This document shows positions 28,989-43,522 of a DNA stretch of 47,491 bases, in pieces. The DNA comes from Clostridia bacterium (lineage in GTDB: Bacteria; Bacillota_A; Clostridia; TANB77; CAG-508): NCBI GenBank assembly GCA_017475185.1, contig JAFVGB010000001.1, positions 1-47,491 on the forward strand, given 5' to 3'. The notes under the pieces are model-generated. The model saw only the letters and a list, made by a program, of their open reading frames with translations. It did not search any database and was not told the DNA's origin. The translations under genes were made by a program, and so were the position numbers. Numbering within the stretch: the first letter of the stretch is position 1; every line of letters begins with the position of its first letter.

Positions 28989-29609
28989 ATGAGCGTTACG
29001 TTAGATAAAATTTTAGGCAGTATATTAATGCTTCCTATAACAAGTGCAAGATTTTATTCTAATCCAATAATAGAAAGTGAAGTTATAACAGGTTATACAA
29101 ACGATTTAAAAATTTTATATCCAGAGTTGGAAAGCAGTTATAATTTTCCATCTAAAAGCGTTATAGATAGTAAAGGTATGCAAAGAACATACGGCTGGGA
29201 TTTTGAATTTAGTGTTTACGTTCCTAATAATAATTTTTATAAAGATACAACAAGTGCAGGATTACATGGACAAGGTTTTAATATGCTTTTAGAATTACAA
29301 AAATTAATAAATTATGGTTCTTGTTTATTAGATTTAAGACTTGGCAACGTTCCTGATGGTTCGCAATTATTAGTTGATGAGAATTTGCCGTTGGGCGACC
29401 AGGAGGCGCCAACAAATATAAATTTTTCATTATTAAGACATATAATAATAAAAAAAGGAAGTATAAGTTATTCAGTTGAAAGTGTAGAAAACCGACCACG
29501 TACAAAGATAACATATAAAACATTCTTAAACTCTTTAACAGATCCAAATGAAATAGAATATACAGGTACGGAATACGTGGATACAGAACCGCCAGAAGAA
29601 ACTACATAA
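28989..29609 (+). CDS. Hypothetical tail-tip protein (206 aa)
   Basis: Not recognised. A mainly beta protein with L-P-I-T-S-A-R-F-Y-S-N-P near 14-25, a G-W-D-F-E-F-S-V-Y-V-P segment near 74-84 and an acidic Glu/Pro/Thr-rich tail. It is the last protein gene of the plus-strand structural block. The RNA array promoter at 29618 begins 9 nt after its stop. Confidence 0.6.
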   Translation: MSVTLDKILGSILMLPITSARFYSNPIIESEVITGYTNDLKILYPELESSYNFPSKSVIDSKGMQRTYGWDFEFSVYVPNNNFYKDTTSAGLHGQGFNMLLELQKLINYGSCLLDLRLGNVPDGSQLLVDENLPLGDQEAPTNINFSLLRHIIIKKGSISYSVESVENRPRTKITYKTFLNSLTDPNEIEYTGTEYVDTEPPEETT

Positions 29610-29617
29610 AAAACAAT

Positions 29618-29648
29618 TTGATTTTTAATTAAAAAAGTGTTATTTTTG
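29618..29648 (+). promoter_or_regulatory. Array promoter P1
   Basis: TTG 29618-29620, 20 nt, TATTTTTG 29641-29648. Confidence 0.8.
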
Positions 29649-29952
29649 TATATAACTAATTAACAATTTTTATTAACTAATTAACAAATCCTTAAACATT
29701 TAATTTAATAATCTGTTTTTTGATTTATATTTCATCACCATTGAATGATTTCTTTTGAATAAAATAGCTTAAAATTTTTTAGGTTATGAAATTATGAAAG
29801 TATTTCAAAGTAATATGAAAGATATTAGAAAACACTAAGAATAACTTAAGATGTTTATAAGAAAGGTTTTTTTAATAACAATAGTAAATTAGTTGTGTGT
29901 GTGAAAATAGGAAGGCGCAGCGAGTATCTACGCCTATTATTACACAAAATAT

Positions 29953-30027
29953 CGCGGGGTGGTGTAATTGGTAAACACGCGAGGCTGTGTACCTTGTTAG
30001 CTGGGAGTTCGAGTCTCCCCCCTGCTA
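29953..30027 (+). tRNA. tRNA-like element 1, anticodon loop reads GUG (His-like)
   Basis: A full cloverleaf can be drawn: acceptor CGCGGGG / CCCTGCT, D stem GTGT/ACAC with AATTGGTAA loop, anticodon stem CGAGG/CCTTG with loop CTGTGTA, T stem GGGAG/CTCCC with TTCGAGT loop. Oddities: pair 1-72 is C-U (unpaired, as in initiator tRNAs), position 37 is U instead of a purine, the discriminator is A with no encoded CCA, and the G-1:C73 pair of real tRNA-His is missing. It may be a degenerate tRNA or a tRNA mimic. Confidence 0.6.
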
Positions 30028-30062
30028 CGAATTTAATTAATTATTGTTTAACTAAATAAAAT

Positions 30063-30085
30063 CCTGCCGTGTTTGGAGGGGCAGG
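30063..30085 (+). ncRNA. Hairpin B1 (conserved GUGUUUGGAGG loop)
   Basis: Stem CCTGCC/GGCAGG, loop GTGTTTGGAGG. See B2 and B3: loop kept, stem pairs exchanged. Confidence 0.75.
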
Positions 30086-30208
30086 TGTGACATATTTAGT
30101 AACACCTATTAATTATTTTTTCTAGACATAAATAATCAAATAATTCTTCAAATCAATATCATACTAATTTTAGTATGATATTTTTTTTATTCTGCAATAA
30201 GAATTATT

Positions 30209-30238
30209 TTGTTATTGATTAGAAATTTATTATTTTTG
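30209..30238 (+). promoter_or_regulatory. Array promoter P2
   Basis: TTG 30209-30211, 19 nt, TATTTTTG 30231-30238. Confidence 0.85.
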
Positions 30239-30337
30239 TATTGTCTTTAGGTTTGATAGGTTTAATTTAACGACAACACAACATGACAAGGAGAATGCTT
30301 AGGAGGGTCGGCGTTCTCCTTTATTTATATATAACAT

Positions 30338-30411
30338 AGCGGGGTGATGTAATTGGTAAACATAGCAGGGTGGTTGCTTGCTTATTGTAGGTTCGAATCC
30401 TTCCTCCGCAA
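30338..30411 (+). tRNA. tRNA-like element 2, anticodon loop reads GGU (Thr-like)
   Basis: Cloverleaf: acceptor AGCGGGG / CTCCGCA, D stem ATGT/ACAT with the same AATTGGTAA loop, anticodon stem GCAGG/CTTGC with loop GTGGTTG, T arm GTAGG/CCTTC with TTCGAAT loop. Pair 1-72 is A-A (unpaired, as in element 1), positions 32/37/38 are G/U/G, and the T stem has a U-U mismatch. The discriminator A is followed by CA only. The unusual anticodon loop argues against a normal elongator tRNA. Confidence 0.55.
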
Positions 30412-30424
30412 CAAAAAATTTACT

Positions 30425-30454
30425 TTGTATTTTAATAAAAAAGAATTAATTTTG
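30425..30454 (+). promoter_or_regulatory. Array promoter P3 (TAATTTTG)
   Basis: TTG 30425-30427, 19 nt, TAATTTTG 30447-30454; a variant -7 box that still fits TAnnTTTG, 33 nt ahead of hairpin B2. Confidence 0.7.
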
Positions 30455-30486
30455 CAGTATAATTATTATGTTTAACTAATTAAAAT

Positions 30487-30510
30487 CGCGCCGATGTTTG
30501 GAGGGGCGCG
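30487..30510 (+). ncRNA. Hairpin B2 (conserved GAUGUUUGGAGG loop)
   Basis: Stem CGCGCC/GGCGCG, loop GATGTTTGGAGG (12 nt; one extra A against B1 and B3). Confidence 0.75.
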
Positions 30511-30612
30511 TGGTTAAGGTTTGACATACTAACTTCCTGTAAAATTTTTTTATAATATTTAACATTGTTTGAATGAAATATCATACTATTCCAGTATGAT
30601 ATTTTTTTTATT

Positions 30613-30642
30613 TTGTAATTAATTAGAAAAATGTTATTTTTG
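30613..30642 (+). promoter_or_regulatory. Array promoter P4
   Basis: TTG 30613-30615, 19 nt, TATTTTTG 30635-30642. Confidence 0.85.
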
Positions 30643-30648
30643 TATTAC

Positions 30649-30795
30649 AATTAATTTAATATGTTTAACAAACTTAAATCGTACCGTGTTTGGAGGGGTA
30701 CGTGTGTTGGGGGTTTGGATAGACATAACTACCTATTATTTTGTTTTGTAAAATTTAATTTTCTTAAGAAGGATAAATAATTTATCCTTCTTTTT
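30649..30795 (+). ncRNA. RNA unit 3: hairpin B3 and terminator, no tRNA-like element
   Basis: Leader ATTACAATTAATTTAATATG, TTTAACAAACTTAAATC, then hairpin B3 (30680-30702), a GACATA box, and a strong terminator AAGAAGGATAAA/TTTATCCTTCTT (30766-30777 with 30781-30792) plus T-run. This shows the minimal cassette: promoter, B hairpin, terminator. Confidence 0.75.
30680..30702 (+). ncRNA. Hairpin B3 (conserved GUGUUUGGAGG loop)
   Basis: Stem CGTACC/GGTACG, loop GTGTTTGGAGG identical to B1. Confidence 0.75.
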
Positions 30796-30953
30796 AATAA
30801 GAGTTTCCAAAACGGAAGGTGCAGGTGGTTGCTCTTCTGCATCTATAAAACATAAATGTTTTTTTCATATTTATAATAAAATTAAATTATTAAAAATAGT
30901 ATTAGACTGATTTTTATTTTTAGCAATAGATTAAAATTCTATTGCTTTTTTTA
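30796..30953 (+). ncRNA. Structured segment between units 3 and 4
   Basis: Contains TTCC/GGAA with loop AAAAC (about 30805-30817) and GGTGCAG/CTGCATC (30818-30824 with 30837-30843) with loop GTGGTTGCTCTT. It ends with the terminator AGCAATAGA/TCTATTGCT (30922-30930 with 30938-30946). No promoter of its own was found, so it may be read-through from unit 3. The loop word GTGGTTG recurs in unit 5 and in tRNA-like element 2. Confidence 0.5.
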
Positions 30954-30955
30954 TT

Positions 30956-30985
30956 TTGTTATTTCAAAAATAATTATTATTTTTG
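30956..30985 (+). promoter_or_regulatory. Array promoter P5
   Basis: TTG 30956-30958, 19 nt, TATTTTTG 30978-30985. Confidence 0.85.
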
Positions 30986-30991
30986 TATATA

Positions 30992-31180
30992 AATTTTTTC
31001 GTAATTAACAATTTTTTTAACTATTAAATCCCTTGTAATAGGGACTTCTTACAGAAGAGTTATACGTAGAAAAGAATATAACTAATGGTAGAATTAAAGT
31101 GTTAAAGAAAAATTTTGAAATGTAGTAAAAAAAAAGAAAAAAGGGATGACAGAGAGGTTTTCATGCCTCTCTTTTTTTTT
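30992..31180 (+). ncRNA. RNA unit 4 (about 190 nt)
   Basis: The leader ends TTTTAACTATTAAATC. Stems: TCCC/GGGA (31029-31032 with 31041-31044), AGTTATA/TATAACT (31058-31064 with 31077-31083), then the terminator AGAGAGG/CCTCTCT (31151-31157 with 31166-31172) followed by a T run. No plausible coding frame. Confidence 0.7.
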
Positions 31181-31201
31181 CTAAAAATTCTCAAAAAAAT
31201 T

Positions 31202-31231
31202 TTGTTATTTATAAAAAAGTTATTATTTTTG
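31202..31231 (+). promoter_or_regulatory. Array promoter P6
   Basis: TTG 31202-31204, 19 nt, TATTTTTG 31224-31231. Confidence 0.85.
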
Positions 31232-31237
31232 TAACAT

Positions 31238-31512
31238 ATTTGATTTTCGATTTGCAGTTAGCGATAACTGGAGATTCAAACTGACTGATTCATAAGAGGT
31301 GGTTGTTACAGCTCGCCGCCTCTTATACTGGCAATAATTTATTATTTATTGTATAGATATAACTTAAAAATTGCGTTCCATTAAGTTATCATGTTCACCT
31401 TATTCTCATAGAGTGTTATTTTGGCGGGACACTTTGTGAGTATATGCAGTAAGAAAAAGAGACAAGTTCCCTTATTAGGTTTATTACTCTTTCTTCAGCT
31501 TGTCTCTTTCTC
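31238..31512 (+). ncRNA. RNA unit 5: five consecutive hairpins (about 275 nt)
   Basis: Stems in order: CAGTTA-GCGA-TAACTG (31255-31270, GNRA loop); ATAAGAGG/CCTCTTAT (31292-31299 with 31319-31326); ATAACTTAA/TTAAGTTAT (31359-31367 with 31381-31389); CTCATAGAGTGT/ACACTTTGTGAG (31405-31416 with 31429-31440, two G-U pairs); AAAGAGACAAG/CTTGTCTCTTT (31456-31466 with 31499-31509). This is the most structured RNA of the array and very unlikely by chance. Confidence 0.8.
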
Positions 31513-31664
31513 TTAAAAAAGACAGCAATATTTTTTTAATTCTTATATAATCTTTAAATAATTTTTTCATATACTTTTAACATTATTTGTTTATAAAAAT
31601 TTATTTTTTGATATACTTTTGATTTTTTCATGGCTAACAGAACCTACAAAGGTTCTGTTTTTTT
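31513..31664 (+). ncRNA. Segment ending in terminator, weak promoter
   Basis: The terminator AACAGAACC/GGTTCTGTT (31636-31644 with 31651-31659) has a long T-run. The only -7-like box is TACTTTTG (31614-31621) without a TTG at the right distance. It may belong to unit 5 read-through. Confidence 0.4.
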
Positions 31665-31677
31665 ATGCAAAATTATT

Positions 31678-31707
31678 TTGTTTTTAATAAAACTTTTTGT
31701 ATTTTTG
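31678..31707 (+). promoter_or_regulatory. Array promoter P7
   Basis: TTG 31678-31680, 19 nt, TATTTTTG 31700-31707. Confidence 0.85.
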
Positions 31708-31713
31708 TAATAC

Positions 31714-31956
31714 AATTAATTAACATTTTTTTTAACAAATAATTTTTTATATTTCTATTAAATCTATACATAAATATATTAAAATATGTTATTTGATATC
31801 CTGCTTTATCTATTAATCAGTGCCAATTAAATAAGTTTATCATAATAGAAAAGCAAAAAATGTTATTAAATGTAGTTAATATATATAAAATCATATAACC
31901 AGAATAATAATGAGCAACAGAATTATTAAAGATTTTTAATAATTCTGTTTTTTTAT
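31714..31956 (+). ncRNA. RNA unit 6 (about 240 nt)
   Basis: Shares the ATACAATTAATTAACA leader. Otherwise AT-rich. Ends with a perfect 15-bp terminator stem AACAGAATTATTAAA / TTTAATAATTCTGTT (31916-31930 with 31935-31949) and a T-run. Confidence 0.65.
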
Positions 31957-31971
31957 TTGCTCCAGAATTGT

Positions 31972-32082
31972 TATTTTTGTACAATAATTAACTATTTATT
32001 CAAAATTTCAATTAAATGGTTTAATTTTTGATTCAGTATTATTTATATATCATTTAGCAGGAAGCCGCTCCTGCTTTTTTTA
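31972..32082 (+). ncRNA. RNA unit 7 (about 100 nt) with its -7 box
   Basis: TATTTTTG 31972-31979 (no TTG at -33). The transcript ends in AGCAGGA/TCCTGCT (32056-32062 with 32069-32075) plus T-run. Leader ACAATAATTAACTATT resembles the other units. Confidence 0.6.
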
Positions 32083-32093
32083 TATAAAAAGTT

Positions 32094-32123
32094 TTGTTAT
32101 TTGAAAGAAAATTATTATTTTTG
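32094..32123 (+). promoter_or_regulatory. Array promoter P9
   Basis: TTG 32094-32096, 19 nt, TATTTTTG 32116-32123. Confidence 0.85.
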
Positions 32124-32129
32124 TATATA

Positions 32130-32276
32130 ATTATTTTTGTTTAACTAATTAAATATAATTGCTTATCAATTTTATTTATTTAACTCTCAAATTATATAAA
32201 GACTTAAACATAAATAATTGCAAGTGTTCGGCTAATTGGAAATTTAGGGAAGCGAAAAACTTCCCTTATTTTTTGA
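32130..32276 (+). ncRNA. RNA unit 8 (about 145 nt)
   Basis: The leader includes TTTAACTAATTAAATATAATTG. Terminator AGGGAAG/CTTCCCT (32246-32252 with 32260-32266) followed by TATTTTTT. The 61-codon frame that spans it is not credible as a gene because it reads through the terminator and the next promoter. Confidence 0.7.
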
Positions 32277-32302
32277 AATTTATTAAAAATTTATTATTTT
32301 TG
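32273..32302 (+). promoter_or_regulatory. Array promoter P10
   Basis: TTG 32273-32275 (inside the T-tract of the previous terminator), 19 nt, TATTTTTG 32295-32302. Confidence 0.85.
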
Positions 32303-32308
32303 TTTATA

Positions 32309-32374
32309 AGATATAGATTCATTGAAGTAAAAAGGAAAATTTGAAGCAATAATTTTAAATTATTGCTTTTTTTA
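32309..32374 (+). ncRNA. RNA unit 9 (about 65 nt)
   Basis: The shortest unit: promoter, about 35 nt, terminator AAGCAATAA/TTATTGCTT (32344-32352 with 32360-32368) plus T-run. Confidence 0.65.
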
Positions 32375-32375
32375 T

Positions 32376-32406
32376 TTGTAAATAATCGTAGAAATATATA
32401 TTTTTG
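32376..32406 (+). promoter_or_regulatory. Array promoter P11
   Basis: TTG 32376-32378, 20 nt, TATTTTTG 32399-32406. Confidence 0.8.
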
Positions 32407-32412
32407 TACTGC

Positions 32413-32480
32413 CTTTATAAAAATATAAATTTTAATAGCTCTGATAAGAAGGGACGGCTTGCCTAACCGTCCAAATTTTT
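32413..32480 (+). ncRNA. RNA unit 10 (about 70 nt)
   Basis: Ends with GGACGG/CCGTCC (32452-32457 with 32467-32472) followed by AAATTTTTT. Downstream to 32650 lies a GC-richer stretch (around 32485-32560) without a gene. Either the terminator leaks or this is a separate structured RNA segment. Confidence 0.55.
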
Positions 32481-32654
32481 TAAAATTTTCGACTTCCCAA
32501 GACCGAGACCGGTTCGCGGCGAGCGTGGAAACCATCAGTCGTATGCATCCGAGACTTGCTGTTACCTGATACGTCTTAAAAGCAGTATTTCTATACCCTC
32601 TGCCAAACTATACTAAAAAATAAGACTTTGCTATACTGGGAAATATGTATAAAA

Positions 32655-32680
32655 AAAAGCACGCTCAATGCGTGCTTTGA
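32655..32680. terminator. Bidirectional terminator between RNA array and Cys-repeat genes
   Basis: AAGCACGC/GCGTGCTT (32657-32664 with 32670-32677), A-run on the left and T-run on the minus side. It ends the minus-strand Cys-repeat transcript and could stop the RNA array from the left. Confidence 0.8.
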
Positions 32681-32694
32681 CCAAAGATAAAATA

Positions 32695-33240
32695 CTACAA
32701 ATTTTTGTAAACTAATCTGCGTTTAATTAATTTAGAATCATACAAGTTTATTTTACTTGCTCGGTTATAATTTAGGAGGCTGTCAATATAGGCGTTGCTG
32801 CACATTTCGGCGTTATTGCAAAAATTGCAGTTATTACAGCAGTAACAATTTGTGCAGGCTTCGCATTTATAGGACATTTCGCAATTATGGCAATGTTCGC
32901 ATTTGATGCAGTTATAAATATTTACGCAGTCGAAATTGCCGTAAGATTTAGAGGCGTTGTTACATTTTATGCAATCAATGCAATTAATACAGGACATACA
33001 GGAGGCACAGCATTCACAATAGGAGCAGTCCACGCAGTCTGTGCAGTTTTTACAATTATAACAATTAAAGCAATGAAAATTATCTTGATTTAGATTTTCG
33101 TATTCTTCAAGGGTTAAATTTGCCCAATTTAGGAACTCTTGCGTTACGCCGTTTATGATATATTTCCAGTTCCATTTTTTATATTCTTTAAATTCGTTAT
33201 AATCTTTAAATATTAGAGTTTTGATTTTATAATTTAACAT
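32695..33240 (-). CDS. Cys-repeat protein, paralogue 2 (181 aa)
   Basis: About 27 Cys. N-terminal family region with I-I-N-G-V-T-Q-E-F-L-N-W and L-T-L-E-E-Y. Then H-C-F-N-C-Y-N-C and CxxC steps (D-C-V-D-C-S-Y-C), a short Cys-free break (N-N-A-S-K-S-Y-G) and a second Cys block, and a 35-residue tail without Cys (S-K-I-N-L-Y-D-S-K-L-I). The start is preceded by TTTTATAGGAATTAAAA, shared with paralogue 3. No separate promoter found; likely read-through from paralogue 3. Confidence 0.75.
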   Translation of the reverse strand: MLNYKIKTLIFKDYNEFKEYKKWNWKYIINGVTQEFLNWANLTLEEYENLNQDNFHCFNCYNCKNCTDCVDCSYCECCASCMSCINCIDCIKCNNASKSYGNFDCVNIYNCIKCEHCHNCEMSYKCEACTNCYCCNNCNFCNNAEMCSNAYIDSLLNYNRASKINLYDSKLIKRRLVYKNL

Positions 33241-33277
33241 ACTTTTAATTCCTATAAAATTTTATTAATAAAAAGAT

Positions 33278-33302
33278 ACAGGAGAGGCTAATCCTCTCCT
33301 GT
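33278..33302 (-). terminator. Leaky terminator between the two Cys-repeat genes
   Basis: ACAGGAGAGG/CCTCTCCTGT (33278-33287 with 33293-33302), overlapping the stop codon of paralogue 3 and followed on the minus strand by ATCTTTTTA. It probably lowers expression of paralogue 2. Confidence 0.7.
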
Positions 33303-33785
33303 TAATATATAATGGTAAAAATCGACTGCTTTATTTTTTAATTTAATATTTGAAATTTCGTTTCCATATTTTACATTTGTGCAATTTTTGCTTTTGCGGA
33401 GCGTTTCGCATTTTACGCATTCAGTGCAATCGTCGCAATCTTCACAATCGGTGCAAAAATTTGCTCTTTTACAATAGAAGCATCTAACATCAAAGAAGCA
33501 GTAATGACAACCTATGCAGTCATCGCAATCTTGGCAATTAAAGCAATTATGGCAAGATTGGCAATTTATGCAATCTTCGCAGCCCATGCAGTTCCAGCAG
33601 TAGTAGTTTGTTTCGTTGAACTTTTGGTAAAGTTCGAAAGAGAGGAGATAATTTTTTAAGAAAAGCTCGGAGCATCCGTTTATTTTTTCGTTCGGATGAT
33701 ATTCAAGGTAATTTTGAAAATCATCGTAGCTTTCAAAAATTTTAGTTAAAAATTTTTGTTCAGAATTGTTTTGTTTTTTTGTCAT
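33288..33785 (-). CDS. Cys-repeat protein, paralogue 3 (165 aa)
   Basis: About 22 Cys. N-terminal K-I-N-G-C-S-E-L-F-L, then C-W-N-C-M-G-C and CxxC steps with many acidic residues (C-E-D-C, C-D-D-C, C-T-D-C-E-D-C-D-D-C-T-E-C), then a Cys-poor tail. It has a strong promoter on the minus strand (33840-33870) and an ATAGGAATTAAAA start region identical to paralogue 2 and to the plus-strand gene at 34411. Confidence 0.75.
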   Translation of the reverse strand: MTKKQNNSEQKFLTKIFESYDDFQNYLEYHPNEKINGCSELFLKNYLLSFELYQKFNETNYYCWNCMGCEDCINCQSCHNCFNCQDCDDCIGCHYCFFDVRCFYCKRANFCTDCEDCDDCTECVKCETLRKSKNCTNVKYGNEISNIKLKNKAVDFYHYILTGED

Positions 33786-33839
33786 AATTTTAATTCCTAT
33801 AAAATTTGATTTTCGAAAAAGAGTTAAATTTTTGTATTA

Positions 33840-33870
33840 CAAAAATACAAAAATTTTTCGAAAACTCCAA
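33840..33870 (-). promoter_or_regulatory. Bacteroidota-type promoter for Cys-repeat genes
   Basis: Minus strand: TTG (33870-33868), 20 nt, TATTTTTG (33847-33840). Confidence 0.8.
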
Positions 33871-33943
33871 AAAATTTTTAATTTTTTGGACGGAAATATT
33901 CGATTTTTTTGAAAAATTTTTTTTAATTTTTTTTTAAAAAAAT

Positions 33944-33974
33944 TTGGTTTTTTCGAAAAAAAGTGTTATATTTG
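33944..33974 (+). promoter_or_regulatory. Bacteroidota-type promoter, divergent from the Cys-repeat genes
   Basis: TTG 33944-33946, 20 nt, TATATTTG 33967-33974, followed 35 nt later by the ATG of a small membrane protein. Confidence 0.75.
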
Positions 33975-34009
33975 TATTATAAAAATTGACAAAAAAAAGG
34001 AACGCAAGA

Positions 34010-34165
34010 ATGAAAAACAAGAACAGTTATTCAAATTTTAAAAAGGCAAGGCGGATAAAAAAAGCCAAGAAGATACTCCTCGCAATTTTTTTGAGAAATC
34101 CGATTGCATTTTTATTTTATTATATGCTTTTTTCGTATTTATGGTTTAAGCTCTGGGGCTTTTAG
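34010..34165 (+). CDS. Small basic membrane protein (51 aa)
   Basis: Starts M-K-N-K-N-S-Y-S-N-F-K-K-A-R-R. About 25 very basic residues are followed by a hydrophobic segment (A-F-L-F-Y-Y-M-L-F-S-Y-L-W-F) to the end. A promoter and AAGGAACGC lie ahead of the ATG. A GC-rich structured 3' region follows in the same transcript. Function unknown; resembles small toxin-like or lysis-regulating peptides in layout only. Confidence 0.55.
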   Translation: MKNKNSYSNFKKARRIKKAKKILLAIFLRNPIAFLFYYMLFSYLWFKLWGF

Positions 34166-34330
34166 AAGCAGGAAGCAAGGGAGCAGGGACGGCGGAAGCC
34201 GCCAAGAGGAGCGGACGCCCAAAGGGGCACCACCCACCCTCCTTCTTACAAACCTAAAAAAAGAGCAGGAACAAAAAGGAGACCAGGCGTTCCGCCCAAA
34301 GAGACTAAAAAAAAATAAAAAAAGTTCTTG
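34166..34330 (+). ncRNA. GC-rich structured segment with GGAGCAGG element
   Basis: GC content jumps well above the flanks. Stems: GGCGG/CCGCC with loop AAG (34191-34203), GCCC/GGGC (34217-34220 with 34225-34228), GGCG/CGCC (34286-34289 with 34293-34296). GGAGCAGG (34180-34187) is shared with the RNA regions at 38674, 38788 and 39499, suggesting a related RNA. It lies behind the small membrane gene, possibly as its 3' RNA. Confidence 0.5.
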
Positions 34331-34358
34331 CATATTTCAAAAAAAAGTATTATTTTTG
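34328..34358 (+). promoter_or_regulatory. Bacteroidota-type promoter
   Basis: TTG 34328-34330, 20 nt, TATTTTTG 34351-34358, 52 nt before ATG 34411. Confidence 0.8.
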
Positions 34359-34410
34359 TAATACAAAAATTAACAATAAACAAAAACAAAAAAAAATAGG
34401 AATTAAAAAA

Positions 34411-34758
34411 ATGCAAAGCACAGAAAAAAGATTTATTTGTTTAAGACGTACTATATTTAACCATAAGCCTTATATAGTAACAGAAAAAGCCACTCTAAGA
34501 TTGAACAACACAATAAAAGGGGACTTCCCAATGGTTTTTAATTTAGCATTATTAAAGACAAAAGATGCTTTTTATTTTGAGCAATATATAAAAAGCAAAT
34601 TAAAGGGAATAAACGAATACGATTACCCTGTAAATTACATAAAACGTTTATTTATTGAATGCTGGGATATGTCAAGTGACGGCGAATTAAAGATAGGAGA
34701 AAGAAAAGCAATTAACAAAATAGGATTTACAAAAGAGGAGGGGTTAGTATGTTTATAA
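34411..34758 (+). CDS. Hypothetical protein (115 aa)
   Basis: Not recognised. Begins M-Q-S-T-E-K-R-F-I-C-L-R-R-T; basic N-terminus, middle beta/alpha (D-A-F-Y-F-E-Q-Y-I-K-S-K-L), and no membrane helix. It has the ATAGGAATTAAAA start region seen in the Cys-repeat genes and is coupled to the next tiny gene by a 10-nt overlap. Confidence 0.6.
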   Translation: MQSTEKRFICLRRTIFNHKPYIVTEKATLRLNNTIKGDFPMVFNLALLKTKDAFYFEQYIKSKLKGINEYDYPVNYIKRLFIECWDMSSDGELKIGERKAINKIGFTKEEGLVCL

Positions 34759-34865
34759 TAAAATTATTATCTATATTTTGGTTTACGGTATTAGGACCAG
34801 TATTAGTAGGCGGGATAATAGGAGCGTATATAAAACGCAACGAAGAAGAGCCTATACAAAAATAA
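34749..34865 (+). CDS. Tiny membrane protein (38 aa)
   Basis: Starts M-F-I-I-K-L-L-S-I-F-W-F-T-V-L-G, hydrophobic through residue 27, with a charged C-terminus (K-R-N-E-E-E-P). It overlaps the preceding gene by 10 nt. Single membrane helix; function unknown. Confidence 0.5.
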   Translation: MFIIKLLSIFWFTVLGPVLVGGIIGAYIKRNEEEPIQK

Positions 34866-34866
34866 T

Positions 34867-34897
34867 TTGTTTAATAGAAAATTTATTTTTATTTTTG
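34867..34897 (+). promoter_or_regulatory. Bacteroidota-type promoter before the replication-like operon
   Basis: TTG 34867-34869, 20 nt, TATTTTTG 34890-34897. Confidence 0.8.
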
Positions 34898-34958
34898 TAA
34901 TACAATAAGTACTTCAATTTTATATTAAAAATATATTCTTCCTCAAAGAGAATAAATA

Positions 34959-35020
34959 AAGCAGGTTCAGTCTTCCCCCATTTTATCTTAATAAAAAATT
35001 TGAGCCTGCTTATTTTTATT
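34959..35020 (+). terminator. Attenuator-like hairpin just before ATG 35031
   Basis: AAGCAGGTTCA (34959-34969) pairs with TGAGCCTGCTT (35001-35011): 11 bp, one G-U, 31-nt loop, followed by TATTTTTATT. It sits between the promoter and the start codon 20 nt downstream, so it either ends a short leader RNA like the array units or attenuates the operon. Confidence 0.65.
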
Positions 35021-35030
35021 AATAATTAAA

Positions 35031-35729
35031 ATGATAACAGACATATATTCATTTACACAATCTATTGTTGAAGTAGTAAAGACATATTACAAGAATAATC
35101 CGACATTAGACAATTACAATGCGTCATCGCCATTATTTCCAAAATACATAGCAGAGTACATATTACGCACCAGATATGGGATATTGCGCAATACAGGGTT
35201 CAAGTTTTTAGATTTATTATTAACAAACACAGAAAGCAATCATATTTATAAAAAGATTGACACTGGGAATTTTGGATTAAAGCGTGATGTTATATTAATA
35301 AATAAAGAAATAGACAAGATAAAAGAGAATAATATATTAACTTCAGAGCAGAATATATTATTTGGCTTTATATATCATACATTATTAGATTATTACAAAG
35401 ATTATGAATTTTTGGAGCGTTACAATTTAAAGACGGTATCCAAGCAGAAGACATTTTTAGCACATTATTTAGTTTATTTTTCAGTAAGCACATATTGTGG
35501 GACATTTGATAGGTTAAAGAGGACTGAGAACGTATTTGATTCAGATTTTACGACCACTCGTATTAGTTTTATATATACTAATATATCTCGTAAATTCAAA
35601 AAGCAGGATAAAACGGCGATTGACATATACAATGAGATATTAAATTTTTTCAATGCTTCAAAATTCAAAGAATATTTTAATTATATTAAACCGATAGAAT
35701 ATGGACACAGCAACAGAGAAGAAAATTAA
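35031..35729 (+). CDS. Hypothetical helical protein (232 aa)
   Basis: Not recognised; strongly helical and Tyr/Ile/Lys-rich, with Y-I-L-R-T-R-Y-G-I-L-R-N-T-G-F-K-F near 43-59 and E-Q-N-I-L-F-G-F-I-Y-H-T. First gene of an operon that continues with two HTH-like proteins and a clamp-like protein, so a replication role (initiator or loader) is conceivable. It overlaps the next gene by 29 nt. Confidence 0.55.
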   Translation: MITDIYSFTQSIVEVVKTYYKNNPTLDNYNASSPLFPKYIAEYILRTRYGILRNTGFKFLDLLLTNTESNHIYKKIDTGNFGLKRDVILINKEIDKIKENNILTSEQNILFGFIYHTLLDYYKDYEFLERYNLKTVSKQKTFLAHYLVYFSVSTYCGTFDRLKRTENVFDSDFTTTRISFIYTNISRKFKKQDKTAIDIYNEILNFFNASKFKEYFNYIKPIEYGHSNREEN

Positions 35730-36024
35730 TTTAATGGACAGCCTATTACAAAAGATATTTGAGGTTATTCCAGAATATAATTTTGAGGATTGGTCTGTAT
35801 TTCAGTATAACATAGAGCCGTTATATATGGACACTATATTATACGTATTAGACACGTTAGAAATTCCACGTTTTATACTTGCAGAACGTTTTAATTATGA
35901 CATTGACGAATTGACAACGATTTTACACAAGACTTATTATGCTATAAATTTAGACAAAGAATACATAGAATTTTACAAAAAAGTTAAAACTAAATTAAAA
36001 GAGTATAATATTTTTATTATTTAG
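35701..36024 (+). CDS. HTH-like protein (107 aa)
   Basis: Helical. The segment L-E-I-P-R-F-I-L-A-E-R-F-N-Y-D-I-D-E-L-T near 56-75 reads like a helix-turn-helix, with an overall layout like the neighbouring 115-aa protein. It may be a diverged paralogue of it. DNA binding is inferred. Confidence 0.5.
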   Translation: MDTATEKKINLMDSLLQKIFEVIPEYNFEDWSVFQYNIEPLYMDTILYVLDTLEIPRFILAERFNYDIDELTTILHKTYYAINLDKEYIEFYKKVKTKLKEYNIFII

Positions 36025-36025
36025 A

Positions 36026-36373
36026 ATGTATAAAAAATTTGAAAATGTAGTTACTCCATACTATACATTTAATTATAAATATATAAATGAGATAATAAAT
36101 ATATTCTTAAAATTTTATAATGTATCGTATTTTGAACTTATAAATATAAACAAGAGTTATAATAAGATTTTCAGATTATTTATCTATTTTTTATGCAAAA
36201 ATTCTAAATTATCCAATGAGGAAGTTTCATATATTTTTAAAGTTCCTTATGATGCTATTATCGCTGTACTTGTAGAATTTAATAAAGAATTTAAAAAAAA
36301 AGATAAGAATGAAATTTATGCAAGTTTATACTCTGATTATTTAACACTTCAAGAATTGATTAATGATTTATAA
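36026..36373 (+). CDS. DnaA domain IV-like HTH protein candidate (115 aa)
   Basis: Residues about 27-90 follow the order of the DnaA C-terminal DNA-binding domain: F-Y-N-V-S-Y-F-E-L (start helix), a basic linker, R-L-F-I-Y-F-L-C-K-N-S-K-L-S-N-E-E-V-S-Y-I-F (helices), and V-P-Y-D-A-I-I-A-V. The canonical D-H-S/T-T-V signature is replaced by P-Y-D-A-I-I. It lies directly upstream of a clamp-like gene, mirroring dnaA-dnaN order. Similarity is by eye. Confidence 0.4.
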   Translation: MYKKFENVVTPYYTFNYKYINEIINIFLKFYNVSYFELININKSYNKIFRLFIYFLCKNSKLSNEEVSYIFKVPYDAIIAVLVEFNKEFKKKDKNEIYASLYSDYLTLQELINDL

Positions 36374-36391
36374 ACAAAACGGATTTTATCA

Positions 36392-37867
36392 ATGTTAAAT
36401 TTTAATATTTCGACTTTTAAATTTATTGAGCTGGTAAAAAATAGTTATGCTATTTGTACAGATTTAAGATGTAGAGGAAGAAATAGAGATACTGCTTTAA
36501 TGTATATTTATCAAAAAGATTTAGAGGTTTCTTTTTGTACTTCTTTTTACAATATATCGACAAAGAAAAATTATTTTACTGATAAACCAAACGAAGGCTT
36601 TGCTCTTGTTAAAATGTCTTCTTTATTTTATGTATTAAATCAATTTGGACATTATCAAGATAGAGTACTCGATACGCTCAATCCTATATTTAATGTGTTC
36701 TATGATGAAATTACTTCTCAATTAGTTATTTCTTTTGAAAATACTTCTTTTAAATTAGAAACTTTTAATAATGACGAAGTAAAATGCAGTGAGTTTTATT
36801 CTTTATTCAAAAACTTCAAGAATAACTTTGAAAATTTAACGTCTTTCAATCTGCCAAAATATACTAATTTTTTTATTGATCAGCTTAAAGGTTCAGAACA
36901 AAGCTCGTTTTATGACGGCTTCCCTTCTTGTTCTTTCAAAATAGATTTTAATAATGGGATTTTTAATTTTATAGACAATAGACTTGATGGACTTTTATTT
37001 TACTCTTCTACGGAAATGAATTTTGTAAATAAATTTGATTCTGGCGTTTATTATTATAATGTTCCTTACAAATTTTTTACTTGGTTCTCCTATTTCAAAT
37101 ATAAAGAAAAAAATCTAATGTTTTATATTTCTGGAAATGATATTTATATTGTCCGTGATTTAGTCAATTCTATTTCTGATTATTACGCTACTTTCTCTCT
37201 TAAAAGATTAAACGAAAATAAACTTAAAGCGTCTCAACAATCTCTTTTTGAAAATGCGTCCGAAACTTTAAGAAAATACAGGAAACTTAAACTCCACGAC
37301 AATCAAGATTTTAATAATATACTTAACTTCAAAGATATCATTAAAATTTCTAATATAAAAGTTTCTTCTTTTGAGAATATTTATAACGATGTAGATAATT
37401 ATAATGTAAACTTCGGTACTATTCAAGTTAATTTTAATAATTTATTTAATACTTTGGCTCTTTTTAATATTGGAGCTGATGCAGAAAATAAAGCTTCTTC
37501 TGGTACTTTTAGAGTTGTTGGTAATAATTTAAATTTTTCTCTTTCTTCTGCATATTCTAAAATAAATATTTCTCAAAATATCCCTATTGGTAATCCTGAT
37601 AATGTAAAATTTAATGTCTCTTTGAATCTTAATACTATTAAATTATTCTTAAACTCTTTTAGAGCTAAATTCTTTCAAGAATATTCTAATACTAAAGATT
37701 ACGATTTATATCTTTCTTTACTTGGCAATGATAATAACAATAATGCACGTTTAACCTTTAGAAAAAAATCTTTTGTTGATAATTATGCTATTAATAATTT
37801 CAAATATCAATTAAATTGTTCTCTTTCTAAAGATTATAAATTTTATAAAAAATCATTAGGTATGTAA
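36392..37867 (+). CDS. Possible sliding-clamp-like protein (491 aa)
   Basis: Three successive regions each look like a clamp half-ring unit: residues 65-130 (L-V-K-M-S-S-L-F-Y-V-L ... L-V-I-S-F-E-N-T-S-F), 190-275 (F-I-D-N-R-L-D-G-L-L-F ... N-L-M-F-Y-I-S-G-N-D-I-Y) and 350-475 (I-Q-V-N-F-N-N-L-F-N-T-L ... L-N-L-N-T-I-K-L-F-L-N). Length exceeds bacterial beta clamps (about 370 aa). Codon use here is richer in T-ending codons than in the rest of the phage, suggesting separate origin. A structural protein is a real alternative. Confidence 0.35.
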   Translation: MLNFNISTFKFIELVKNSYAICTDLRCRGRNRDTALMYIYQKDLEVSFCTSFYNISTKKNYFTDKPNEGFALVKMSSLFYVLNQFGHYQDRVLDTLNPIFNVFYDEITSQLVISFENTSFKLETFNNDEVKCSEFYSLFKNFKNNFENLTSFNLPKYTNFFIDQLKGSEQSSFYDGFPSCSFKIDFNNGIFNFIDNRLDGLLFYSSTEMNFVNKFDSGVYYYNVPYKFFTWFSYFKYKEKNLMFYISGNDIYIVRDLVNSISDYYATFSLKRLNENKLKASQQSLFENASETLRKYRKLKLHDNQDFNNILNFKDIIKISNIKVSSFENIYNDVDNYNVNFGTIQVNFNNLFNTLALFNIGADAENKASSGTFRVVGNNLNFSLSSAYSKINISQNIPIGNPDNVKFNVSLNLNTIKLFLNSFRAKFFQEYSNTKDYDLYLSLLGNDNNNNARLTFRKKSFVDNYAINNFKYQLNCSLSKDYKFYKKSLGM

Positions 37868-37868
37868 T

Positions 37869-38366
37869 ATGAAAAATATTTTTCTCTTTTTGCTTCTATC
37901 TCTATTCTTTGGCAATTCTTTAATTGCTCAATCTGAGACTATACACAAAAACGATAAAGAAGCATATCATTTATTTTTTGTTCACAAAAAAACTCTGGAC
38001 ACTCTCATTTCTAAATCTAAACATTTACAATTAACAGAAGAGAATTTTTTACTCCTCTGTGATTTGTTCAAAATACAATATCCTCGCTTTGTCTTAAAAC
38101 AAGCTATTCTTGAAAGCGGAAATTTTAAGTCTAATGTCTTTAACAATACTAATAATTTATTTGGTATGAAAAGACCAGGAGCAAGAAGAACGTATGCTCT
38201 CAAGAAAAAATACAAATTAAATTACGCTTGCTATGAAAGCTGGATACATTCACTCGCTGATTATAAACTTTGGCAAGGCAACAAAACTATTACTGGAAAT
38301 TATGCTGATTATCTGGAAAAACGATGTTTTGCCGAAGCCAAAGACTACAAAGAAAAACTAAAATAA
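37869..38366 (+). CDS. Secreted glucosaminidase (GH73-type), second lysin
   Basis: This 165-aa protein begins with a clear signal peptide (M-K-N-I-F-L-F-L-L-L-S-L-F-F-G, cleavage near I-A-Q). The catalytic region matches the FlgJ/GH73 family: K-Q-A-I-L-E-S-G-N-F with Glu82 as the acid, N-N-L-F-G-M-K (95-101), and the Y-x-S-W...S-L-x-D-Y motif near 122-133. It cleaves peptidoglycan glycan strands. It lies 1 nt after the clamp-like gene and far from the endolysin cassette; it may serve in entry or late lysis. Confidence 0.8.
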   Translation: MKNIFLFLLLSLFFGNSLIAQSETIHKNDKEAYHLFFVHKKTLDTLISKSKHLQLTEENFLLLCDLFKIQYPRFVLKQAILESGNFKSNVFNNTNNLFGMKRPGARRTYALKKKYKLNYACYESWIHSLADYKLWQGNKTITGNYADYLEKRCFAEAKDYKEKLK

Positions 38367-38396
38367 AAAAAGCACCTTTTATGGTGCTTTTCTTTT
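38367..38396. terminator. Bidirectional terminator
   Basis: AAGCACC/GGTGCTT (38370-38376 with 38383-38389), T-rich on the plus side and A-rich before it. It ends the plus-strand glucosaminidase operon and a short minus-strand RNA. Confidence 0.8.
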
Positions 38397-38447
38397 AACT
38401 TGTAGGGATTATTTTATCGGAAATAAATATTAATGAAAGCTCTTACG
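38367..38447 (-). ncRNA. Short minus-strand RNA (about 80 nt)
   Basis: A perfect promoter on the minus strand (TTG 38483-38481, 19 nt, TATTTTTG 38461-38454) fires towards the terminator at 38367-38396 with no coding frame between. Same promoter-short RNA-terminator form as the array, on the opposite strand. Confidence 0.6.
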
Positions 38448-38453
38448 CAATTA

Positions 38454-38483
38454 CAAAAATAAAGACTTTCTATAACTTTTCAA
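38454..38483 (-). promoter_or_regulatory. Bacteroidota-type promoter for a minus-strand short RNA
   Basis: TTG, 19 nt, TATTTTTG on the minus strand. Confidence 0.8.
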
Positions 38484-38619
38484 AAATTAACCACAAAAAT
38501 TCGGTTTTATACATAAATCCCTTTATCCCATGCACTTTTTTTTACGATGCGAGCCAATACGCCGCGAAGCGAACTCCTTTAACTCTCTTGTTTTTTTGGT
38601 GTTACGCTATTTCTCATTT

Positions 38620-38880
38620 TCGACCGCTTTTTTTTTGAGGCGGGAGCGGGCGGGAGCGGACTGCTTTGGACAAGGAGCAGGACGCCCGCACGACTGCCGC
38701 CGATATGAGGGCGGGAACAAATTTCGTGCAGTTCACGAGAGCAGATGGGAAAGAAGCAAGTTGAAGGTAATATCTGCACGCCGCCATGGAGCAGGGTCAT
38801 TGGGAAACCCAGCGACTAGCGGCGATGCAGAGCTTGATGACAAAGGGTGGGGAACCAAAGATACAATACAAATAAAATAA
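38620..38880 (+). ncRNA. GC-rich structured RNA candidate, element 1
   Basis: Stems: CGCCC/GGGCG (38683-38687 with 38709-38713), TCGTG-CAGTT-CACGA (38724-38738), GCAGAT/ATCTGC (38741-38746 with 38772-38777). Then comes the repeated 3' module: CCGC (38781-38784) paired with GCGG (38819-38822), enclosing GGAGCAGG and GGGT/ACCC. The frames through it contain no recognisable protein and the base composition is unlike any gene here. No promoter was found directly upstream. Confidence 0.55.
38781..38828 (+). repeat. Repeated RNA 3' module, copy 1
   Basis: CCGCC, GGAGCAGG, GGGT-CATTGGGAA-ACCC, AGCGACTAGCGGCG. Matches copy 2 at 39493-39540 with a compensating stem change. Confidence 0.7.
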
Positions 38881-38889
38881 AAAAATTGT

Positions 38890-38920
38890 TTGTTTTTTTC
38901 TAAAAAAAGTATTATTTTTG
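38890..38920 (+). promoter_or_regulatory. Promoter of the long structured RNA
   Basis: TTG 38890-38892, 20 nt, TATTTTTG 38913-38920, followed directly by the GC-rich segment. Confidence 0.85.
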
Positions 38921-38927
38921 TAATATA

Positions 38928-39598
38928 AAAATTAGCGACTGGGAGCGCGGCGCGGCGGTAGGCTTTTCCCTACAAGCCGAACGACACGGCGACGACCCCA
39001 AAGAGCCAAAAAGCACGAGATTTTGTCCAATCCTTCCCTGTGAGACTTTACACTCTCACAGGGGTGGAATACTTCGATACTAAGGGTCGGGCAACAGCAG
39101 GACGCGGGGTGGGACAAGGTAAACTAAAGCGAGGCGGTCGATGCACCGCCGAGCGGATTCCCTGTTCGTTTGGAAGTAAAATGTTTGGGAATTAGAGTAG
39201 GCGGGCTGCCGCACGCCTGCAAGAGTACGCATTCAGGGCAACGTGTTTATAAACGCATCGGTCTGATGCGATGCGTGTAGGCGGGCGAGGGGCACGCCTG
39301 CGAACAAAGGGTCGTCCTCTTGGGGGTGGGACTGAGAAACTTCAAGGCTTCGCCTCAGACGATGGCAATCGTCAAAGGACTTGGATCAATCCGATACTAT
39401 TAAAAAGCACTTGGATTTTGCACGATTCACACGCTTAAGCGCAAGCAGGCGAGAAATTGAGTTAATTCGATAGTTGATAGATAATTTGCCGTCCGCCGGG
39501 AGCAGGACCAGTGGAAGTCCAGCGACCAGCGGCGGCTGCTAAGCGAACGAGCGGAACGAATGTGGAGCGAGTGAGCGACAGCAATCATTTTTTATTTT
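38928..39598 (+). ncRNA. Long ornate structured RNA candidate (about 670 nt), element 2
   Basis: Perfect or near-perfect stems: CCCTGTGAGA/TCTCACAGGG (39036-39045 with 39054-39063), GGCGGT/ACCGCC (39133-39138 with 39145-39150), GTAGGCG/CGCCTGC twice (39197-39203 with 39214-39220; 39277-39283 with 39295-39301), ACGCATCG/CGATGCGT (39253-39260 with 39269-39276), CTGAG/CTCAG around AGGC-TTC-GCCT (39332-39358), GACGAT/ATCGTC (39358-39363 with 39368-39373), CCGCC/GGCGG (39493-39497 with 39531-39535). It has its own promoter, ends in T-rich sequence, and is strongly GC-biased. Size, structure and phage context recall the ROOL/GOLLD classes of large phage RNAs; identity not tested. Confidence 0.7.
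39493..39540 (+). repeat. Repeated RNA 3' module, copy 2
   Basis: CCGCC, GGAGCAGG, GGAC-CAGTGGAA-GTCC, AGCGACCAGCGGCGG. Against copy 1 the inner stem changes from GGGT/ACCC to GGAC/GTCC with pairing kept. Confidence 0.7.
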
Positions 39599-39614
39599 TT
39601 TACAGGATTTAATT

Positions 39615-39764
39615 ATGAATAAGAAACAAAGTCATCTTAAAAAAAAGAAAAAGAAAAAAGAATTTGACAACAACAAAAGAGTTTTTATAGATGGAGCTTG
39701 GAAATTGTTAAATGATGAAATTAGGAATTACTTTGATAATGTAAATAAGAAGTGGAGGGATTAA
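39615..39764 (+). CDS. Small basic protein before hsdM (49 aa)
   Basis: Starts M-N-K-K-Q-S-H-L, followed by nine consecutive Lys and a C-terminal helix (D-G-A-W-K-L-L-N-D-E-I-R-N-Y-F). AGGATTTAATT lies before the ATG, and its TAA is directly joined to the ATG of the methylase gene, so the two are coupled. Function unknown. Confidence 0.5.
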   Translation: MNKKQSHLKKKKKKKEFDNNKRVFIDGAWKLLNDEIRNYFDNVNKKWRD

Positions 39765-41264: not shown

Positions 41265-41835
41265 ATTAAAAGAGTTTATAGAATTAAAGAAACAAGGTTT
41301 TAATTATGGGTTATTGAGTGAATGTTGTTATATATTAGACAACAAAAGAGAAAGAATAAAAAAAGCAGACCGTGAAGCTGGGATATATCCATATTATGGA
41401 CCGAATGGAGTACAGGCATACGTAAACAAATATACATTTGATGGTGAGTTTGTATTAGTTGCAGAGAAAGGCGTTGTAACAACAGATGAAGGGCGTCCCA
41501 TAGTAAACTGGGCAACAGGGAAGATTGGTTGTGGAGATAGTGTGCATATTATAAGCGAAAAGCAAGGCACATTATTAAGATTTTTATATTATTATTTGCA
41601 ATGTGTAGATATAAGAATGATAGTAACAACAGGAATGATACCGTCATTAACAATAACAGCATTTAGGAATATAAAAGTTCCAATTATTCCCATAGAATAT
41701 CAACAAGAAATAGTAAACAATTTAGATATGTTTTATTACAGCTATAAAGATTTAGAAAAGGAATACAAATTGATAGACAAGTTATTAAAAGAGAATATTA
41801 TGTCAAGGATATTTAATTTTAAGGAATTGAAATAA
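41254..41835 (+). CDS. hsdS: Half-length type I specificity subunit (HsdS-like)
   Basis: This 193-aa protein carries a single target-recognition domain: Y-I-L-D-N-K-R-E-R-I near the start, I-Y-P-Y-Y-G-P-N-G-V-Q-A-Y near 46-58, V-L-V-A-E-K-G-V near 68-75, then T-G-M-I-P-S-L-T and the conserved helix (P-I-I-P-I-E-Y-Q-Q-E-I). Full HsdS has two such halves (about 400 aa). Half-S proteins can dimerise and give a palindromic split target. The partner is the adjacent HsdM. Confidence 0.82.
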   Translation: MNIRLKEFIELKKQGFNYGLLSECCYILDNKRERIKKADREAGIYPYYGPNGVQAYVNKYTFDGEFVLVAEKGVVTTDEGRPIVNWATGKIGCGDSVHIISEKQGTLLRFLYYYLQCVDIRMIVTTGMIPSLTITAFRNIKVPIIPIEYQQEIVNNLDMFYYSYKDLEKEYKLIDKLLKENIMSRIFNFKELK

Positions 41836-42071: not shown

Positions 42072-42089
42072 TTTTTTTATAAAAAATGT

Positions 42090-42120
42090 TTGTTTATATC
42101 AAAAAATATTATTATTTTTG
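42090..42120 (+). promoter_or_regulatory. Bacteroidota-type promoter of the small-gene operon
   Basis: TTG 42090-42092, 20 nt, TATTTTTG 42113-42120, only 12 nt before the ATG at 42133, so the messenger is nearly leaderless. Confidence 0.85.
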
Positions 42121-42132
42121 TAATACAGAATT

Positions 42133-42312: not shown

Positions 42313-42327
42313 ATTAAGGGTTAAACA

Positions 42328-43509: not shown

Positions 43510-43522
43510 AGGAGTTATTAAT

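What the first reader, a model, noticed from the sequence alone, without database searches (positions are those of the whole stretch)
29610..32694. A 3-kb array of at least ten independent promoter-small RNA-terminator units in a phage
Seen directly: ten TTG-19/20 nt-TAnnTTTG promoters in one direction, an eleventh -7 box, and about twelve perfect-stem terminators between them. There is no credible gene. Leaders share an ATACAATTAATTAAC / TTTAACTAATTAAATC theme, so the units look like repeated duplications that diverged. Phages seldom spend 6% of a genome on tandem non-coding transcription units. Possible roles (inference): decoys for host RNA-binding proteins or ribosomes, anti-defence RNAs, regulators of phage mRNAs, or packaged RNAs.
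Basis: partly seen in the sequence, partly recalled or inferred. Interest (0 to 1): 0.93.

Follow-up and report, generated by a model that had tools for sequence, protein, structure and literature searches.

The report
Phage bank of tiny RNA genes
A bacterial virus carries a 2.9-kb stretch with ten promoter-like sequences, about eleven terminator-like hairpins and two tRNA genes but no apparent protein gene, kept in a sister virus from a goat's stomach, and the small RNAs it is predicted to make would likely act as mimics of parts of the host's protein-making machinery.

Summary
The array is real. On the + strand of 29610-32694 there are 10 strict promoters (TTTG-N19/20-TAnnTTTG) against 0.21 expected and none on the - strand, an eleventh -7 box, and 11 hairpin/T-run terminators. 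A sister phage (G001:C107, goat-omasum MAG contig) keeps it at 6.5% substitutions; promoter boxes changed at 2/120 positions, spacers at 28/192. Substitutions lack codon phase and 21 of 39 indels are 1 nt: non-coding. Units are partly paralogous: three here (four in the sister) carry a covarying hairpin around a GUUUGGAGGGG loop; three sites share GGUGGUUGYU, the tRNA-Thr anticodon loop. No Rfam family apart from tRNA, phage record or other genome of the order matched. I read it as a bank of small structured RNAs, likely mimics or decoys of translation parts; expression and function are untested. A CsrA-sponge reading was tested and is disfavoured.

The parts
29617..32482 (+). whole bank of RNA transcription units
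   Evidence: 10 strict promoters vs 0.21 in shuffles; sister phage keeps it
29617..29648 (+). U1 promoter
   Evidence: -33 box is TTTT in the sister
29655..30196 (+). U1 transcript (predicted): long leader, hairpin, tRNA-His, loop-A hairpin, terminator 30155-30182; the sister has a further loop-A hairpin near its start
29953..30028 (+). tRNA-His(GTG) gene, C:U at pair 1:72, no CCA encoded
   Evidence: 0/76 changes in the sister
30063..30086 (+). loop-A hairpin, copy 1
30208..30238 (+). U2 promoter
30245..30615 (+). U2 transcript (predicted): hairpin with UUAGGAGGGU loop, tRNA-Thr, then the U3 region
30288..30321 (+). hairpin before tRNA-Thr with AGGAGGG in the loop
   Evidence: 34/34 identical in the sister
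30338..30412 (+). tRNA-Thr(GGT) gene, A:A at pair 1:72, no CCA encoded
   Evidence: 0/75 changes in the sister
30369..30378 (+). motif B (anticodon loop of tRNA-Thr), copy 1
30424..30454 (+). U3 promoter, inside U2
30461..30615 (+). U3 transcript (predicted) with loop-A hairpin copy 2 (30487-30511) and terminator 30575-30605
30612..30642 (+). U4 promoter
30649..30800 (+). U4 transcript (predicted) with loop-A hairpin copy 3 (30680-30703) and terminator 30766-30792, which has one compensatory pair change in the sister
30801..30952 (+). U4 extension: hairpin 30817-30844 with motif B (30824-30833), terminator 30922-30946, no promoter of its own
30955..30985 (+). U5 promoter
30992..31182 (+). U5 transcript (predicted), terminator 31151-31172
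31201..31231 (+). U6 promoter
   Evidence: -33 box is TTTA in the sister
31238..31668 (+). U6 transcript (predicted): hairpin 31292-31326 with motif B (31298-31307), hairpin 31405-31440, long-loop hairpin 31456-31509, terminator 31636-31659
31677..31707 (+). U7 promoter
31714..31955 (+). U7 transcript (predicted), terminator 31916-31949
31972..31979 (+). U8 -7 box without a well-spaced -33 box
31987..32082 (+). U8 transcript (predicted), terminator 32056-32075
32093..32123 (+). U9 promoter
32130..32272 (+). U9 transcript (predicted), terminator 32246-32266
32272..32302 (+). U10 promoter
32309..32375 (+). U10 transcript (predicted), terminator 32343-32369
32375..32406 (+). U11 promoter
32413..32482 (+). 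U11 transcript (predicted), hairpin 32452-32472 with a weak T run

Best explanation
This is a phage bank of non-coding RNA genes, in which ten promoter-like sites, an eleventh -7 box and eleven terminator-like hairpins bracket units predicted to be transcribed by host RNA polymerase into small RNAs, two of them with tRNA genes, that would likely act as mimics or decoys of translation parts. Shown from sequence and the sister phage: the sites, the tRNA genes, the loop-A hairpin with covarying stem, the second repeated motif (the tRNA-Thr anticodon loop), conservation without coding signal, and common descent of parts of U1-U4. Inferred: that the units are transcribed during infection, that the RNAs act in trans, and that the GGAGG loops (which fit the 16S 3' end of a family relative) and the tRNA-like parts titrate ribosomes, an RNA-binding protein or a tRNA-targeting host factor. 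U5-U11 may do other things.
For: Promoters 10 vs 0.21 in shuffles, one strand only. Boxes 2/120 changed, spacers 28/192, Fisher p 1e-4. No codon phase, 21 of 39 indels of 1 nt. Loop-A stem: 42 of 42 cells paired, 3 of 6 pairs changed on both sides, score 0.524 vs 0.235 shuffled, 0 of 500 as high. TTNGGAGGG 4 times, all in the array, expected 0.33; GGTGGTTGYT 3 times, all in the array, expected 0.04. tRNAs unchanged, 0/151, though both have a non-standard 1:72 pair. 16S of G028 ends GGATCACCTCCTTT; 18 of 54 chosen phage ORFs have an SD-like motif vs 4% of random 21-mers; loop A and real SDs pair with that tail at about -10 kcal/mol.
Against: No expression data. Any GGAGG would pair with the 16S tail; one search has no random control. 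The 16S used is from one relative, found in 1 of 8 genomes asked, not from the host itself. Loop A is absent from U5-U11. Motif B is mostly paired in hairpin 31292-31326. Outside the loop-A family only one clean compensatory pair was seen; in hairpin 31405-31440, 7 of 13 pairs are broken in the alignment. U9-U11 have weak z scores (-1.5, -1.6, -0.9), and in U6b, U7, U9 and U11 the minus strand folds at least as stably. One third of the phage's own ORFs use SD motifs, so an SD decoy would also cost the phage. Only one relative could be compared.
Confidence: 0.4

Rival explanations
1. A gathered set of unrelated accessory RNA genes, as in other phage tRNA/ncRNA-rich regions: each RNA has its own target, for instance base-pairing with host mRNAs, and there is no common mechanism; the tRNAs are ordinary translation helpers.
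For: U5-U11 share promoter and leader but differ in body. Short unstructured 5' part plus terminator in U10 and U11 is the usual shape of base-pairing sRNAs (recalled). Bacteroides has many sRNAs and a paralogous family, FopS, that represses mRNAs (passages of PMC11697453).
Against: Loop A and motif B recur far above chance. No signal of pairing with 54 phage start regions for 8 segments; host mRNAs were not tested. Both tRNAs break the first acceptor pair.
Confidence: 0.35
2. Decoys against a host tRNA-cleaving or anticodon-recognising defence: the tRNA-like genes and the two motif-B hairpins present an anticodon loop as bait or replacement.
For: Motif B is the tRNA-Thr anticodon loop and recurs in two hairpins; the hairpins are unchanged in the sister, 0/28 and 0/35. 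Phage tRNAs can counter retron-Eco7 and PrrC (abstract of PMC11555353).
Against: Motif B is only partly in the loop in U4 extension and mostly paired in U6; it may simply be a tRNA relic. No defence system of the host was looked for.
Confidence: 0.12
3. CsrA sponge: the GGA-containing hairpin loops sequester host CsrA.
For: 47 of 54 genomes of the family and 74 of 123 of the order have CsrA, with a VHRKE motif in the three read. In 8 of 13 flagellin leaders that I could parse a GGCAGGA-type hairpin stands upstream.
Against: GGA is not enriched in the array, 19 vs 22.4 in shuffles; only GGAGG is, 4 vs 0.5. G001, whose bin holds the sister phage, has neither CsrA nor flagellin; it is a 95% complete draft of 340 contigs, so a gap is possible, and the true host is not proved.
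Confidence: 0.06
4. Decayed coding region or a set of tiny protein genes.
For: A 14-codon frame at 31786-31830 is kept with one change. Of 10 typed frames, 3 had a PHROG match at E up to 0.1: E 0.0027, 0.059 and 0.07, all of unknown function.
Against: No codon phase, mostly 1-nt indels, promoter and stem constraint instead; the sister phage has no open frame there either.
Confidence: 0.03

Closest known systems
tRNA-rich region of phage T5 (PMC11555353, abstract seen)
   Same: A phage region with several RNA genes including tRNAs, outside the protein genes; can serve against defence.
   Different: Here only two tRNAs, each in a larger transcript, plus many non-tRNA units with their own promoters and terminators; no sequence match in 50,697 phage records.
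GOLLD and ROOL RNAs of phages (PMC12286853, passages seen)
   Same: Structured phage RNAs of unknown function, often near tRNA islands; tRNAs sometimes linked in the same RNA.
   Different: Those are single large RNAs with Rfam models; none matched here at E up to 2 in 29500-33300 or E up to 1 in 33700-47491. The array RNAs are short.
FopS family of paralogous sRNAs of Bacteroides (PMC11697453, passages seen)
   Same: Multi-copy sRNAs from Bacteroidota-type promoters; one phage was reported to hold the sequence.
   Different: FopS members (14) are classed as 9 intergenic, 4 antisense and 1 3'UTR sRNA genes and act by a seed region; here one tandem bank with a structured loop. Sequence comparison with FopS was not made.
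CsrB/RsmZ-type CsrA sponges (recalled)
   Same: Repeated hairpins with GGA in the loop.
   Different: GGA not enriched over the array; the conserved core is longer, GGAGGGG.

Membership tests
Functional elongator tRNAs (His, Thr) | tRNA fold above the Rfam gathering score | tested here: met
   47.5 and 38.3 bits, cut-off 29
Functional elongator tRNAs (His, Thr) | Standard first acceptor pair | tested here: not met
   C:U and A:A at 1:72
Functional elongator tRNAs (His, Thr) | Aminoacylation | not testable with these tools
   needs an assay; recalled E. coli identity elements G-1:C73 (His) and G1:C72 (Thr) are not seen
GOLLD / ROOL | Match to the Rfam model | tested here: not met
CsrA-sponge sRNA | Many GGA motifs, above composition | tested here: not met
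   19 vs 22.4 in shuffles
CsrA-sponge sRNA | Host has CsrA | tested here: inconclusive
   47 of 54 family genomes yes, G001 no; the true host is unknown
Paralogous sRNA family | Copies share sequence and covarying structure | tested here: met
   7 copies in two phages, loop-A module; only U1-U4
Paralogous sRNA family | Own promoter and terminator per unit | tested here: met
   by sequence for most units; exceptions U3 inside U2 and the U4 extension
Paralogous sRNA family | Transcripts detected | not testable with these tools
   no RNA-seq at hand

The most novel reading that the evidence does not exclude
A phage RNA arsenal aimed at translation: a tandem bank of separately promoted RNAs in which a repeated module presents a Shine-Dalgarno mimic in a hairpin loop to capture host 30S subunits, while tRNA-like genes and anticodon-loop hairpins engage tRNA-handling factors, tilting protein synthesis towards the phage's largely SD-free messages.
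Probability: 0.18. Interest if true: 0.88.

Novelty: new variant of a known kind. Interest (0 to 1): 0.62.

Why it matters
Phage RNA genes are easily missed because annotation looks for proteins. About 6% of this 47-kb window is a non-coding bank under clear selection on promoters and stems, with two recurrent loop motifs that name testable targets (30S subunits, tRNA factors). If the RNAs are translation mimics, this would be an RNA-based way for a phage to take over or shield protein synthesis.

Tried and rejected
Relatives: a terminase scan of viral contigs gave two distant phages, 22% identity, not examined for an array. The 964-aa tail-side protein gave none in viral contigs and one close protein cluster, 97% identity, 32 members on 3 short contigs (only the 7997 best candidates were scored). 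The terminase scan of genome contigs gave only the sister contig. Phage records: none by megablast of 24 kb or sensitive blastn of the array. Loop-A pattern in viral contigs: one hit, inside an open frame running off L055 that looks like a replicative helicase by eye, taken as chance. The U6 20-mer: none. In 123 genomes of the order, loop A at up to 2 mismatches: 33 places, 4 of them in G001:C107; the others lie scattered, never two on one contig, and the reversed-pattern control has 12 by my count. Model R1: 1 of 123 genomes. No metagenome scan was allowed.

A DNA search of part of the array in 54 family genomes rang in 45; outside G001 the matches are short, at most 93 bases. Of 29 such loci kept, 10 have a strict promoter within 120 nt of the centre.

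CsrA sponge: see rivals. Start codon after loop A (GUG in 6 of 7 copies, my reading): the frames differ in length between the two phages, so not coding. Antisense to phage start regions: best duplexes lie within the range of 12 shuffles for 8 of 8 segments. A sigma-70 scan gave no excess, 26 vs 30.7. The weak Rfam matches in the array besides tRNA (Plastid-psbA-2, Trp_leader, isrK) are below gathering scores.

Literature: nine searches listed no paper whose title or shown abstract start describes such a phage array. I saw passages of four papers and the abstract and outline of one; the rest are listings. The phage-sRNA review PMC12197685 has no 'tRNA', 'array' or 'decoy' in its main text by that search.
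Full report
WHAT THE WINDOW IS. The window is a tailed phage: terminase large subunit, portal, major head protein, head protease, endolysin and an Erf-type annealing protein match PHROGs or Pfam. Its nearest relative found is contig C107 of genome G001, 46,559 bp. A terminase scan of named genomes gave a contig of the same length, JAFRQN010000154.1, titled Bacteroidetes bacterium RGIG2709, goat omasum; I take the two to be the same. The two phages are collinear over the part compared. No phage record matched 24 kb of the window by megablast. The host is not proved.

THE OBSERVATION. In 29610-32694 the strict pattern TTTG-N17-20-TAnnTTTG occurs 10 times on + and never on -; 500 dinucleotide shuffles give 0.21 on average and 2 at most. 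The whole window has 27 on both strands. An eleventh -7 box stands at 31972-31979. Eleven hairpins followed by T runs lie on the + strand, the last with a weak tail. A stricter scan gives 10 terminator-like sites on both strands of 29000-33600 against 1.7 in shuffles. A sigma-70 scan shows no excess.

Two tRNA genes, His(GTG) 29953-30028 and Thr(GGT) 30338-30412, lie inside. Both show a non-standard first pair, C:U and A:A, and Thr also a T-stem mismatch. Neither encodes CCA (sequence). By recalled E. coli identity rules these would be poor His and Thr acceptors, yet they are unchanged in the sister phage, 0 of 151 positions. They are paralogues, 80% over 45 nt including sequence upstream, and the terminators of their units are 88% alike over 32 nt.

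SELECTION. Array substitutions are 181 of 2800 aligned positions (81 window bases have no partner), against 158 of 618 in the gene just upstream and 23 of 546 in the Cys-rich gene downstream. Promoter boxes changed at 2 of 120 positions, spacers at 28 of 192, Fisher p 1e-4; 8 of the 10 strict promoters remain strict in the sister. In 17 chosen hairpins the stems changed at 20 of 369 positions and the loops at 28 of 156, p 2e-5. Of their 185 pairs 169 are unchanged, 1 changed on one side, 3 on both sides, 11 broken, 1 gapped. Two of the 3 doubly changed and 7 of the 11 broken pairs are in hairpin 31405-31440, where the sister can form a shifted hairpin by eye; the third double change is in the terminator 30766-30792. 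Substitutions by phase are 59/66/53, while the upstream gene shows 48/35/75, and 21 of 39 array indels are 1 nt. The region is not coding.

TWO RECURRENT MOTIFS. Loop A: GUUUGGAGGGG occurs 3 times, expected 0.08. The aligned copies, 3 here and 4 in the sister, keep a 6-bp stem in 42 of 42 cells with 3 pairs changed on both sides; the covariation score is 0.524 against 0.235 in shuffles (0 of 500 as high) and at most 0.111 when the partner is slid. The number of pairs changed on both sides and of pair types is not above shuffles. One sister copy reads GUGUGCGGAGG. The hairpin before tRNA-Thr has UUAGGAGGGU in its loop; TTNGGAGGG occurs 4 times, 4 of 4 in the array, expected 0.33. The U1 copy present in the sister is missing here. 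Motif B: GGTGGTTGYT occurs 3 times in the window, 3 of 3 on + in the array, expected 0.04: as the tRNA-Thr anticodon loop, in hairpin 30817-30844, and in hairpin 31292-31326, where it is mostly paired. Both non-tRNA hairpins are unchanged in the sister.

FOLDING. z scores for 13 array segments, two of them overlapping, run from -0.9 to -4.8; 40 coding controls of 160 nt average 0.00, sd 0.81, lowest -2.03. U9-U11 are weak, and in U6b, U7, U9 and U11 the minus strand folds at least as stably. So evidence for structure is good for U1-U6 and slight for the last units.

HOW IT MOST LIKELY WORKS. Shown: promoter-like and terminator-like sites around a non-coding body for most units. Inferred: transcription by host polymerase, action in trans. 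For loop A, the 16S of a family relative, G028, ends GGATCACCTCCTTT, and 18 of 54 chosen phage ORFs have SD-like motifs against 4% of random 21-mers, so SD pairing seems to be in use; in 13 of 13 parsed flagellin leaders of the family GGAGG stands just before the start. Loop A pairs with the 16S tail at about -10 kcal/mol, like real SDs in the same calculation; but any GGAGG would. Motif B and the odd tRNAs fit mimicry of tRNA. I commit to translation-part mimics or decoys at 0.4, with a mixed bag of unrelated RNAs as the main rival at 0.35.

CsrA. The family commonly has CsrA, 47 of 54, and the order in 74 of 123; in G017, G028 and G036 it sits beside a gene I recognise by eye as fliW. In 8 of 13 parsed flagellin leaders there is a GGCAGGA-type hairpin. 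But GGA is not enriched in the array, and G001 has neither CsrA nor flagellin. Disfavoured.

NOVELTY. Loop A is in 1 of 123 genomes of the order by model, G001, and no array relative appeared in 50,697 phage records. Clusters of phage RNA genes are known; a promoter for nearly every unit with repeated loop modules is, as far as nine paper searches show, not described in the held library.

Noticed in passing
window 38620-38880 and 38928-39585: About 1 kb with no credible ORF at 45-56% G+C in a phage of roughly 27%, a strong promoter at 38889, fold z scores -5.2 and -4.8, 94% identical in the sister; the two parts share a motif. No Rfam match over gathering, no phage record; 7 viral contigs matched a motif without wider similarity. 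Candidate large structured RNA.
   Followed up: partly
window 32490-32650; L023 about 6311-6800: An element present once here and repeated in the sister phage, just after the RNA bank.
   Followed up: partly
window 3985-4497 -, 32695-33240 -, 33288-33785 -, 45179-45673 +, 46794-47243 +: Five Cys-rich proteins with CxxC-like spacing (by eye); one matches phrog_15341 of unknown function.
   Followed up: no
family f1 of G001: Terminase homologues at E up to 1e-20 in 50 of 54 genomes and major head protein homologues at E up to 1e-10 in 47 of 54; in G036 the terminase hit lies among chromosomal genes far from the head-gene clusters. Conserved prophages or a domesticated particle.
   Followed up: partly
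family f1, flagellin leaders (L121-L148): In 8 of 13 parsed leaders a GGCAGGA-type hairpin stands upstream of an SD, like a CsrA site; csrA sits by a fliW-like gene in the three genomes read.
   Followed up: partly
window 39765-41835: Type I-like DNA methylase and specificity gene pair; a restriction subunit was not searched for.
   Followed up: no
window 31786-31830: 14-codon frame MLFDILLYLLISAN in U7, one conservative change in the sister; could be a tiny peptide.
   Followed up: no
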